NCBI RefSeq assembly: GCF_018417535.1
Contig: NZ_CP070977.1
Span: 1,674,001-1,738,000, forward strand
DNA length: 64,000 nt
From: Burkholderia pyrrocinia
Lineage (GTDB): Bacteria; Pseudomonadota; Gammaproteobacteria; Burkholderiales; Burkholderiaceae
Reading direction: 5' to 3'
Within the stretch, counting starts at the first letter, position 1. Each line of letters begins with the position of its first letter. Position numbers and translations under genes: made by a program. Positions 19,631-61,869 of the stretch are shown in pieces. Under the pieces are notes generated by a model. It searched no databases, was not told the DNA's origin, and saw nothing but the letters and a program-made list of their open reading frames with translations.

Positions 19631-21115
19631 ATGACCTTGACCGCAACACACGTCAGCCCGACCGCTGCCTCTTCCTCCACTTCATCCGGCGAGGCTCCGC
19701 TCGCCGCGGACGACATCACCGTCGTCGACCAGAGCCTGCTCAAACGCGCCGTCAGCGCAATGGCCATCGGCAATGCGATGGAATGGTTCGACTTCGGCGT
19801 GTACAGCTATATCGCCGTCACGCTCGGCAAGGTGTTCTTCCCGTCCAGCAGCCCGTCCGCGCAGTTGCTCGCGACCTTCGGCACGTTCGCGGCCGCGTTC
19901 CTCGTGCGTCCGCTCGGCGGCATGGTGTTCGGCCCGCTCGGCGACCGCATCGGCCGCCAGCGCGTGCTCGCCGCGACGATGATCATGATGGCCGTCGGCA
20001 CCTTCGCGATCGGCCTGATTCCCAGCTACGCGTCGATCGGCATCATGGCGCCCGTACTGCTGCTCGTCGCGCGCCTCGTGCAGGGCTTCTCGACCGGCGG
20101 CGAATACGGCGGCGCCGCCACCTTCATCGCCGAATTCTCGACCGACAAGCGCCGCGGCTTCATGGGCAGCTTCCTCGAGTTCGGCACGCTGATCGGCTAT
20201 GTGATGGGTGCGGGCGTCGTCGCGCTGCTGACCGCGTCGCTGTCGCAGGAAGCGCTGCTGTCGTGGGGCTGGCGTGTGCCGTTCCTGATCGCCGGCCCGC
20301 TCGGCCTGATCGGTCTCTACATCCGGATGAAGCTCGAGGAAACGCCCGCGTTCAAGCGCCAGGCCGAAGAGCGCGAAGCGCAGGACAAGGCCGTGCCGAA
20401 GGCGCGCTTCCGCGACACGCTGATGCGCAACTGGCGTGCGCTGCTGCTGTGCGTCGGCCTCGTGCTGATCTTCAACGTGACCGACTACATGGTGCTGTCG
20501 TACCTGCCGAGCTTCATGTCGTCGACGCTGCACTTCGACGAATCGCACAGCCTCGTGCTCGTGCTGATCGTGATGGTGCTGATGATGCCGATGACGCTCG
20601 CGGCCGGCCGCCTGTCCGACAGGATCGGCCGCAAGCCGGTGATGCTCGCCGGCTGCGTCGGGCTGCTCGTGCTGTCGATCCCGTCGATGATGCTGATCCA
20701 TGCGGGCACCACGGCGTCGGTGTTCGGCGGCCTGCTGATCCTCGGCGTGCTGCTGTCGTGCTTCACCGGCGTGATGCCGTCGGCGCTGCCGGCGCTGTTC
20801 CCGACCGAGATCCGCTACGGCGCGCTCGCGATCGGCTTCAACGTGTCGGTATCGCTGTTCGGCGGCACGACGCCGCTGGTGACCGCGTGGCTCGTCGACG
20901 TGACGCACAACCTGATGATGCCCGCGTACTACATGATGGGCGCCGCCGTGATCGGCATCGTGTCGGTCGTCGCGCTCGCGGAAACCGCGCGCCAGCCGCT
21001 CAAGGGCTCGCCGCCGGCCGTCGCGACGCGCCGCGAAGCGCACCAGCTCGCGCGCCAGATGCGCGAGGACGACGACTCGGAGATCTACGGCGTCGTGTCG
21101 CCCGCACGCGCCTGA
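19631..21115 (+). CDS. proP: ProP-like proline/glycine betaine:proton symporter (MHS family)
   Basis: A 494-residue inner-membrane symporter of the metabolite:H+ symporter group of the MFS, with 12 membrane segments. Hallmarks are AIGNAMEWFDFGVYSYIAVT near residue 50, RPLGGMVFGPLGDRIGRQR, and FSTGGEYGGAATF. The similarity pattern is that of ProP, which imports proline and betaine under osmotic stress. The short C-terminus (REAHQLARQMREDDDSEIYG) lacks an obvious long coiled coil, so osmosensing may differ from E. coli. AAAGGAG lies just before the ATG. The leader is unusually long. Confidence 0.88.
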   Translation: MTLTATHVSPTAASSSTSSGEAPLAADDITVVDQSLLKRAVSAMAIGNAMEWFDFGVYSYIAVTLGKVFFPSSSPSAQLLATFGTFAAAFLVRPLGGMVFGPLGDRIGRQRVLAATMIMMAVGTFAIGLIPSYASIGIMAPVLLLVARLVQGFSTGGEYGGAATFIAEFSTDKRRGFMGSFLEFGTLIGYVMGAGVVALLTASLSQEALLSWGWRVPFLIAGPLGLIGLYIRMKLEETPAFKRQAEEREAQDKAVPKARFRDTLMRNWRALLLCVGLVLIFNVTDYMVLSYLPSFMSSTLHFDESHSLVLVLIVMVLMMPMTLAAGRLSDRIGRKPVMLAGCVGLLVLSIPSMMLIHAGTTASVFGGLLILGVLLSCFTGVMPSALPALFPTEIRYGALAIGFNVSVSLFGGTTPLVTAWLVDVTHNLMMPAYYMMGAAVIGIVSVVALAETARQPLKGSPPAVATRREAHQLARQMREDDDSEIYGVVSPARA

Positions 21116-61340: not shown

Positions 61341-61380
61341 AAAACAAAAAACCCCGCAAAATCTCGGATTTTTGCGGGGT
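61341..61380 (-). terminator. Terminator of the tRNA-Leu gene
   Basis: Stem ACCCCGCAAAA (61351-61361) with TTTTGCGGGGT (61370-61380) and a short loop, followed on the minus strand by TTTTTGTTTT (61350-61341). It lies 33 bp downstream of the CCA end. Confidence 0.9.
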
Positions 61381-61412
61381 CTCTGTGCCTCTGACCGCAT
61401 CGGACAATCATG

Positions 61413-61747
61413 TGGTGCCGGGGACCGGACTTGAACCGGCAAGCCAATTAAGGCGGCGGATTTTCGTCACACTGCTTCTTTCGAAGCCGGCATCGCGTGG
61501 GCGATGCCGTTCGTGCGCTGGACTATGCCTTCACCGTCGCGCGCGGGCGTAACCGCTGCCCGTGCGCCTTAGGCGCCCCCCGTCTAGTCTCTACACCTTC
61601 CTCGCGGGTGCCGCGAGGCTTGGCTCGGCGTTGCCTCGATGCGCGCATCAGGGGTTTCGCCGAATTTGAAGGGTTCTGCACCGACCGTTTCCGGCCGGGC
61701 ACTCAATCGTTTAAGTCCGCTATGTTTACCAATTTCATCACCCCGGC
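61413..61747 (-). tRNA. tRNA-Leu(UAA), interrupted by a group I intron
   Basis: Exons at 61713-61747 (35 nt) and 61413-61464 (52 nt) join to an 87-nt tRNA with encoded CCA. Acceptor GCCGGGG (61747-61741) pairs perfectly with CCCCGGC (61423-61417); D stem ATG/CAT; anticodon stem GCGGA/TCCGC with loop C-U-U-A-A-A-A, anticodon UAA; a class II variable arm (GCC TTAATT GGC); T loop TTCAAGT. Anticodon, loop and arm all mark leucine. The intron splits the anticodon after its first base, the same site as in cyanobacterial and plastid trnL(UAA). Only if the intron is spliced is the tRNA functional. Confidence 0.95.
61465..61712 (-). ncRNA. Group I (IC3-type) self-splicing intron in tRNA-Leu(UAA)
   Basis: 248 nt, no ORF. 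P1 is a 6-bp helix, exon ACUU (61716-61713) plus AA pairing with UUGAGU (61706-61701) around ACGA, with the required U-G wobble at the 5' splice site. P2 (61698-61681) is 7 bp with a GAAA loop. P7 pairs GACUA (61589-61585) with UAGUC (61525-61521). P9 hairpins follow: a 9-bp one (61509-61488) and GCTTC-GAAA-GAAGC (61487-61474). The intron ends in G (61465). Core blocks at 61669-61653, 61635-61618, 61600-61580 and 61535-61518 match, from memory, the Azoarcus tRNA-Ile ribozyme. Confidence 0.93.
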
Positions 61748-61762: not shown

Positions 61763-61768
61763 ATTCTA
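61763..61768 (-). promoter_or_regulatory. -10 element of the tRNA-Leu gene
   Basis: TAGAAT on the minus strand (61768-61763), 15 nt before the first tRNA base. A TTGCAG lies 14 bp upstream, shorter spacing than usual. It allows independent transcription of the tRNA. Confidence 0.55.
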
Positions 61769-61869
61769 CCATCGGTCCGGCCCTGCAACGCGGTTACCCG
61801 GCGATCGCGTCGACGGTCCATGACGCAAGCCGCACGCGCAACGCTATCCCGTCGTGCCGCACGACACGC

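What the first reader, a model, noticed from the sequence alone, without database searches (positions are those of the whole stretch)
61413..61747. tRNA-Leu(UAA) gene split by a group I intron at the anticodon
The minus strand folds as a complete tRNA-Leu(UAA) only after removing 248 nt from inside the anticodon. The intron has a P1 helix with U-G at the splice site, P2 with a GAAA loop, P7 pairing and a terminal G. In cyanobacteria and plastids the same tRNA is interrupted at the same position by a related intron. I am not sure how widely this is recorded for Burkholderia.
Basis: partly seen in the sequence, partly recalled or inferred. Interest (0 to 1): 0.88.

Follow-up and report, generated by a model that had tools for sequence, protein, structure and literature searches.

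The report
Self-splicing intron in Burkholderia leucine tRNA
The only tRNA found in this genome for the rare leucine codon UUA is encoded with a 248-base, probably self-splicing intron in its anticodon, a known kind of intron that every genome held for this genus carries, and relatives of the intron ride on mobile elements that cut tRNA genes at that very spot.

Summary
Confirmed. Window 61413-61747 (minus strand) is tRNA-Leu(UAA) with a 248-nt group I intron between U34 and A35. ARAGORN finds exactly this when introns are allowed and nothing otherwise. Rfam's group I model matches below its cut-off (38 of 50 bits), so automatic annotation can miss it. On 52 relatives 97.2% of the proposed pair cells hold, against 32-43% in slid controls, with double changes in P7, P3 and P9. 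The gene matches over its full length in 65 of 65 genomes held for the genus, and no other tRNA-Leu(UAA) was found in this genome, so it must splice if UUA is to be read. The intron tree mostly follows the hosts. The kind is known from cyanobacteria, plastids and some gammaproteobacteria; ten searches of an open-access library listed no report for tRNA-Leu in Burkholderia. A new lead lies outside the window: related introns sit in replacement tRNA-Leu(CAA), tRNA-Leu(UAA) and tRNA-Thr(UGU) genes of integrated elements, beside halves of a host tRNA cut in the anticodon loop. The intron may hide the integrase's target while keeping the tRNA usable. Splicing was not tested.

The parts
61413..61747 (-). 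tRNA-Leu(UAA) gene with intron (335 nt, CCA encoded)
   Evidence: ARAGORN with introns allowed: tRNA-Leu(taa), 248-nt intron starting at position 36; full-length match in 65 of 65 genus genomes
61713..61747 (-). 5' exon, 35 nt, ends CUU (C32 U33 U34)
   Evidence: intronless relatives read straight through CTTAAAA at this point (L340 and L345)
61465..61712 (-). group I intron, 248 nt, ends in G (61465); no minus-strand open reading frame of 80 aa or more inside it
   Evidence: RF00028 38 bits, E 3.8e-8; pair counts; ORF list
61413..61464 (-). 3' exon, 52 nt, starts AAAA (A35...) and ends in encoded CCA
61701..61716 (-). P1: exon ACUU 61716-61713 with intron GAGU 61704-61701; U.G at the 5' splice site
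   Evidence: splice-site pair UG in 45 and CG in 7 of 52 sequences; outermost of the four pairs not formed in 20 of 52
61681..61698 (-). P2, 7 pairs, GAAA loop
   Evidence: all 7 pairs have changes on both sides, 89.8% of cells paired
61576..61673 (-). P3: CCCUUC 61673-61668 with GGGGGG 61581-61576
   Evidence: 100% of cells paired; one pair occurs as UG, GC, CG and UA
61624..61664 (-). P4 (61664-61658 with 61630-61624) and P5 (61654-61646 with 61641-61634); no P5abc extension
   Evidence: 95.9% and 98.4% of cells paired
61596..61623 (-). P6/P6a
   Evidence: four pairs counted; P6a in the fold
61521..61589 (-). P7: GACUA 61589-61585 with UAGUC 61525-61521; holds the G-C pair that binds guanosine in known group I introns (recalled)
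   Evidence: 100% of cells paired; CG to GC and UA to CG in 13 sequences; G-C pair in 52 of 52
61539..61567 (-). P8, enlarged here
   Evidence: two pairs counted, 96.2% of cells paired
61468..61517 (-). P9 stem (61517-61513 with 61472-61468), with hairpins P9a 61509-61488 and P9b 61487-61474 (GAAA loop)
   Evidence: GU to CG in 13 sequences in P9; double changes in P9a and P9b
61763..61771 (-). probable extended -10 promoter TGGTAGAAT just upstream of the tRNA
   Evidence: the same motif in all 39 genus loci printed, although the DNA further upstream differs; the consensus scan found no full sigma-70 site
61347..61384 (-). terminator-like hairpin with T run after the tRNA
   Evidence: 1 found, 0.8 expected in shuffles, so weak as a count; 15-pair stem

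Best explanation
It is a real, resident group I intron of the tRNA type (IC3-like) in the only tRNA-Leu(UAA) gene found. The gene is probably transcribed as a single unit from its own promoter. The pre-tRNA folds so that P1 presents U34 paired to G. Guanosine bound in P7 attacks after U34, and the freed U34 then attacks after the terminal G. This joins CUU to AAAA and gives the 7-nt anticodon loop CUUAAAA of an 87-nt tRNA. Shown by sequence: gene, boundaries, fold, conservation, and that no other UAA reader was found. Inferred: the chemistry, promoter use, and that splicing needs no protein. In Burkholderia and close genera the intron seems to be inherited mainly vertically; its patchy presence in one related genus is most simply read as loss.
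For: Boundaries and anticodon. Rfam match. Covariation: 97.2% of 3740 cells paired against 31.7-43.2% for slid versions; 39 of 72 pairs with changes on both sides; 0 of 500 shuffles reached any of the five measures. Genus: 65 of 65. No other UAA tRNA in this genome. Upstream DNA differs among species while TGGTAGAAT stays. Family, hand tally of the genomes listed: full-length intron match in 61 of 61 g1, 11 of 11 g25, 8 of 8 g8, 3 of 3 g13, 3 of 3 g18; in g20, 32 of 59 with the intron and 27 of 59 with a contiguous intronless gene. Tree: Burkholderia, Trinickia, most Paraburkholderia and the Mycetohabitans/Vallotia rows group by host.
Against: RF00028 is under its gathering score. P1 is only four pairs and its outermost pair is lost in 20 of 52 sequences. 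No promoter consensus in the scan. No transcript or splicing data. Tree: the bootstrap had not settled, 25 of 77 inner branches are drawn open, and the program warned of long branches. The family searches scored only two candidates per genome and left 74 and 37 genomes without a match unlisted. The pair structure was drawn on one of the aligned sequences, which favours it over the slid controls.
Confidence: 0.95

Rival explanations
1. A decaying, non-splicing insertion: the gene is dead and UUA is read some other way or hardly at all.
For: UUA is very rare: 4 of 15,092 codons in 41 heuristic ORFs of the window, 28 of 76,856 codons in 223 heuristic ORFs of 17 sampled 20-kb stretches.
Against: 26 of those 223 ORFs still hold a UUA (the ORFs are not curated genes); exons and core helices are kept with compensatory changes among 52 relatives; full-length match in 65 of 65 genomes.
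Confidence: 0.03
2. A mobile, recently arrived group I intron spreading by homing or reverse splicing into many genomes.
For: Related introns do move: the tRNA-Leu(CAA) introns form one clade over several families, and element-borne copies exist. Patchiness in g20 (32 with, 27 without) could be loss or gain and was not resolved.
Against: In the window's part of the tree the rows mostly group by host genus, the intron is in every genome held for the genus, and at 248 nt it has no room for an endonuclease gene.
Confidence: 0.07
3. The split tRNA acts as a switch: splicing efficiency limits UUA reading, so that rare UUA genes are held back (as with the bldA tRNA of Streptomyces, recalled).
For: Only UAA reader found, rare codon, splicing needs guanosine (known for group I introns).
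Against: No data on regulation; a rare UUA in a high-GC genome is expected anyway; relatives without the intron show that it is not needed for the tRNA's job.
Confidence: 0.08

Closest known systems
[quoted passage not shown]
   Same: Same tRNA, same anticodon, comparable sizes: Anabaena 5' exon 34, intron 250, 3' exon 45; Bryopsis 35/206/51 (PMC2729099, passages); here 35/248/52. U.G at the splice site and a terminal G there are recalled, not seen in a call.
   Different: Host is a betaproteobacterium. No cyanobacterial sequence was aligned here, so descent from one common insertion was not tested.
tRNA-Leu(UAA) introns of Thiomargarita and Beggiatoa (Gammaproteobacteria)
   Same: tRNA-Leu-TAA missing from annotation because a putative group I intron interrupts it (PMC4853749, passages).
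   Different: That paper says it did not determine the structure or type of the tRNA introns; no sequence compared here.
tRNA-Ile2(CAU) introns of Acidovorax and Burkholderia (and of Azoarcus, recalled)
   Same: Group I intron in a tRNA of Betaproteobacteria (PMC8450103, passages).
   Different: Different tRNA. The passages seen do not speak of tRNA-Leu.
Element-borne tRNA-Leu(CAA), tRNA-Leu(UAA) and tRNA-Thr(UGU) introns met here
   Same: Same kind of core in the same part of the anticodon loop, terminal G.
   Different: Carried on integrated elements beside host tRNA halves; the CAA type has C-G instead of U.G at the splice site.

Membership tests
Group I intron | P3-P7 pseudoknotted core with P4-P6 domain | tested here: met
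   P3 and P7 100%, P4 95.9%, P5 98.4% of cells paired, with double changes in each
Group I intron | U before the intron paired to G in P1 | tested here: met
   UG in 45 of 52, CG in 7 (the 7 CAA genes of that alignment). PMC11915505 (passages) states the U rule and reports 15 tmRNA sequences with C
Group I intron | terminal G | tested here: met
   G at 61465; invariant as G283 among 52 sequences
Group I intron | match to the curated model RF00028 | tested here: inconclusive
   38 bits against a gathering score of 50, E 3.8e-8 in a 601-base search; of 8 related loci searched at E up to 0.01, 5 match at 31.8-41.9 bits and 3 (L124, L171, L201) do not
Group I intron | guanosine-dependent self-splicing | not testable with these tools
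   needs RNA work
Subgroup IC3 (tRNA type) | no P5abc, compact core, tRNA anticodon site | tested here: met
   P5 is a simple hairpin; absence of P5a-d in IC3 from PMC11835236 (passages). The subgroup call otherwise rests on recall
tRNA-Leu(UAA) intron lineage of cyanobacteria/plastids | insertion between U34 and A35 | tested here: inconclusive
   met for this gene; for the cyanobacterial and plastid genes only exon lengths were read, which fit. [quoted passage not shown]
tRNA-Leu(UAA) intron lineage of cyanobacteria/plastids | common ancestry of the intron | not tested
   no cyanobacterial sequence was put in the tree

The most novel reading that the evidence does not exclude
Anticodon-loop group I introns are shields against site-specific integrases. 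The intron splits the short anticodon-loop core (CTTAAAA here, CTCAAAA in tRNA-Leu(CAA)) in which such integrases cross over, and removes itself from the RNA, so the tRNA works while the target is gone. Mobile elements that break the host tRNA carry an intron-shielded replacement; Burkholderia keeps the shield on its own essential tRNA-Leu(UAA).
Probability: 0.3. Interest if true: 0.88.

Novelty: new member of a known kind. Interest (0 to 1): 0.5.

Why it matters
An essential tRNA of a whole genus seems to be made only through an intron that standard searches drop, so those genomes can look as if they lacked tRNA-Leu(UAA). More widely, the related element-borne copies suggest a use for anticodon-loop group I introns, which are usually taken for near-neutral passengers. 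An intron that hides a DNA target and deletes itself from the RNA would explain why these introns sit where integrases cut, and the idea can be tested with plasmids in laboratory E. coli.

Tried and rejected
Rfam at gathering score on the window: no hit at all; ARAGORN default: none. These misses are due to thresholds and settings, not absence. A homing endonuclease in the intron: no room. Own-genome RF00028 search at E up to 10: only this intron. Phage collection: no match to the gene. Plasmid collection: 33 records match the L130 tRNA-Leu(CAA) gene; 9 cover at least 80% of it, all Mycetohabitans at 68.6-69.5% identity. The two whose record lengths equal contigs of G108 and G156 are the UAA genes at those places. 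The PLSDB gene table holds no RNA genes, so its 'none' says nothing about annotation. A first motif search for integrases in a script printed nothing; Pfam found them.

Alignment A1 used 52 of 118 distinct sequences; the tree 82 rows. Candidates scored per genome were capped at 11 and 2.

Against the shield idea: among 109 distinct intron genes in held loci a host half upstream was found for 5; counting only those with at least 250 bp to look at, 4 of 14 CAA and 1 of 60 UAA (G157, found, is outside this count because L130 holds too little flank). For the UAA type only a 5' half was seen, in G170; no matching 3' half came up. G172 has a 5' part of an intronless tRNA-Leu(UAA), no 3' half found, and the intact tRNA-Leu(UAA) 80 bp on has no intron and keeps ACTTAAAATC, so a shield is not obligatory. 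The relic at G000:C1:1742559-1742630 lies upstream of the gene, which does not fit a simple 3'-end integration; unexplained.

Papers: none of the ten searches listed a paper that I could recognise as reporting a tRNA-Leu(UAA) intron in Burkholderia or intron-bearing replacement tRNAs on elements. I looked at passages of nine papers, no whole text, and most subscription journals are not held. A report of such an intron in a deep-subsurface gammaproteobacterium (J. Bacteriol. 2002) is recalled, not seen (not held).

Full report
What is there. On the minus strand, 61747 to 61413, lies a tRNA-Leu gene with its CCA encoded, cut after the third base of the anticodon loop by 248 nt. ARAGORN sees nothing by default and, with introns allowed, reports tRNA-Leu(taa) with a 248-nt intron starting at position 36; the joined exons fold as an ordinary 87-nt class II tRNA. 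Because the intron starts with AAA and the 3' exon with AAAA, the cut could be slid by up to three bases on sequence alone; U.G in P1 and a terminal G fix it at U34/A35.

It is a group I intron. Rfam's RF00028 matches at 38 bits, E 3.8e-8, below its gathering score of 50; at gathering threshold the window shows no hit. The helices P1 to P9 were written by hand and counted on an alignment of 52 relatives, 45 of them UAA and 7 CAA genes: 97.2% of 3740 cells form standard pairs, against 31.7 to 43.2% when the 3' partners are slid by one to three columns; 39 of 72 pairs have a change on both sides, and 0 of 500 shuffles reached the observed values. P7 changes CG to GC and UA to CG in 13 sequences, P9 GU to CG in 13, and one P3 pair runs through UG, GC, CG and UA. 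The G-C pair of P7 that binds guanosine in known group I introns (recalled) is kept in 52 of 52. The structure was drawn on one of these sequences, so the slid control flatters it, but the double changes do not depend on that. There is no P5abc, as in IC3 introns (PMC11835236, passages).

It must splice for UUA to be read. In the window's genome (8.54 Mb, 3 contigs) the whole gene matches once, plus a relic; the joined exons match nowhere contiguously but, at 79%, in the tRNA-Leu(CAA) gene. RF00005 gives 66 tRNA hits; ARAGORN on the 61 loci that hold them finds Leu CAA x1, CAG x3, GAG x2, UAG x1 and no UAA (the totals there are inflated by overlapping loci). UUA is rare but used: 28 of 76,856 codons, in 26 of 223 heuristic ORFs of 17 sampled stretches. 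The gene looks like a single unit: TGGTAGAAT stands just upstream in all 39 genus loci printed, while the DNA beyond it differs between species. The consensus scan found no full promoter, and its one terminator-like hairpin is no more than shuffles give as a count.

Distribution. All 65 genomes held for the genus match over the full 335 nt, at 82 to 100% identity. In 398 family genomes, by hand tally of those listed (two candidates scored per genome), some genera have it in every listed genome, the listed g10 genomes show a contiguous intronless gene, and g20 is mixed, 32 with and 27 without. The intron tree mostly groups by host genus in the window's part, so vertical descent with losses is the simplest reading; bootstrap values there are rough.

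An offshoot: the same kind of intron on mobile elements. In 16 of 82 tree rows the intron sits in tRNA-Leu(CAA), between C34 and A35; these form one clade (98/86) inside a UAA group and span Alcaligenaceae, Comamonadaceae, Burkholderiaceae, Sphaerotilaceae and Lysobacterales, though the program warned of long branches among them. Their splice-site pair is C-G in place of U.G in the 7 counted. About 49.5 kb lie between, with a tyrosine integrase (PF00589) next to the right end and a complete intron-bearing tRNA-Leu(CAA), starting at 20691, inside the left end. The same left end, 186 to 188 bp before the intron gene, is present in Burkholderia sp. 4M9327F10 (L143/L324), Acidovorax soli (L201/L326), Bordetella ansorpii (L322) and a Lysobacterales MAG (L164). 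3' halves beside integrases of the same domain make-up are in L323, L325, L327 and L330. In L322/L323 both ends are on one contig, about 67 kb apart; for L324/L325 and L326/L327 they are on different contigs. The stretch common to left and right ends is CTCAAAA, the whole anticodon loop, and the intron of the replacement lies inside it.

G170 shows a similar start for tRNA-Leu(UAA): a host 5' half, then an intron-bearing tRNA-Leu(taa), then trbI and a CagX-type conjugation gene; no 3' half was found. G033 shows it for tRNA-Thr(UGU): host 5' half at C1:419523-419583, 3' half at C1:454892-454942, and an intron-bearing tRNA-Thr(tgt) just inside the right end; G344 has the same gene with part of a host 3' half. 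ARAGORN puts the tRNA-Thr intron one base further on than the U.G rule, which gives U34/G35.

What this may mean. An element that splits an essential tRNA must bring a substitute; a bare substitute would offer the element's own integrase a fresh target. An intron in the core removes the target from the DNA and itself from the RNA. By the same reasoning the resident intron of Burkholderia would guard tRNA-Leu(UAA). Bare tRNA-Leu(UAA) genes in the family seem to be cut too: G170, and G172, where a 5' part running through the anticodon stem-loop is followed 80 bp on by a different, intronless tRNA-Leu(UAA). But in neither was the 3' half found, and the substitute in G172 carries no intron and keeps the core, which speaks against the idea. 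A host half upstream was found for 5 of 109 distinct intron genes in held loci, or 4 of 14 CAA and 1 of 60 UAA among those with at least 250 bp of flank. I therefore hold the shield reading at 0.3 for the window's gene.

Against what is known. [quoted passage not shown] passages) and is recorded for Thiomargarita and Beggiatoa (PMC4853749, passages). tRNA-Ile2 introns are recorded for Burkholderia and Acidovorax (PMC8450103, passages). Ten searches of the held library listed nothing that I could recognise on tRNA-Leu(UAA) introns in Burkholderia or on intron-bearing replacement tRNAs. The finding is a new, genus-wide member of a known kind; the element arrangement is the part that would surprise.

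Noticed in passing
G157:C62:20465-70093 (L302-L304, L130); L322/L323; L324/L325; L326/L327; L164: Integrated elements with tyrosine integrase that split the host tRNA-Leu(CAA) in its anticodon loop (common stretch CTCAAAA) and carry a full replacement tRNA-Leu(CAA) interrupted by a group I intron inside that stretch. For L164 only the left end was seen.
   Followed up: partly
G033:C1:419523-454942 (L335, L353, L355); L135/L336 in G344: A 35-kb stretch splits the host tRNA-Thr(UGU); an intron-bearing tRNA-Thr(UGU) lies inside its right end. G344 holds the same intron-bearing gene.
   Followed up: partly
G170:C10:144030-144543 (L333): Host tRNA-Leu(UAA) 5' half, its D-arm 186 bp before an intron-bearing tRNA-Leu(UAA), followed by trbI- and CagX-like conjugation genes.
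   Followed up: partly
G172:C3:32873-33083 (L342): 5' part of an intronless tRNA-Leu(UAA), through the anticodon stem-loop, with a different intronless tRNA-Leu(UAA) 80 bp downstream.
   Followed up: partly
G000:C1:1742559-1742630 (L002:1501-1572), 6.8 kb beyond the window's tRNA: Relic with 26 nt of the intron's 3' end, unchanged, plus a degenerate 3' exon (62 of 72 letters alike), same strand and upstream of the intact gene. The DNA between, which by eye codes for a TetR-SDR-ligase-thiolase set, is matched directly upstream of the tRNA in only 2 of 31 other loci printed (L014, L064).
   Followed up: partly
upstream of the tRNA in L005-L033, L064: The DNA upstream of the tRNA differs among Burkholderia species in at least three ways, with the similarity to the window starting about 23-36 nt before the tRNA.
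   Followed up: partly
tRNA-Leu(CAA) introns, e.g. L164, L170, L201: The 5' splice-site pair is C-G where group I introns normally have U.G; in all 7 CAA sequences counted.
   Followed up: partly
L150, L163; H5 and H6: In Ca. Vallotia and Mycetohabitans the intron-bearing tRNA-Leu(UAA) is on a plasmid or megaplasmid record.
   Followed up: no
Bradyrhizobium plasmid records (H13-H17, H19-H22): Part of the CAA intron gene (query 156-335 or 157-292) matches at 69-71%, perhaps another tRNA intron on these plasmids.
   Followed up: no
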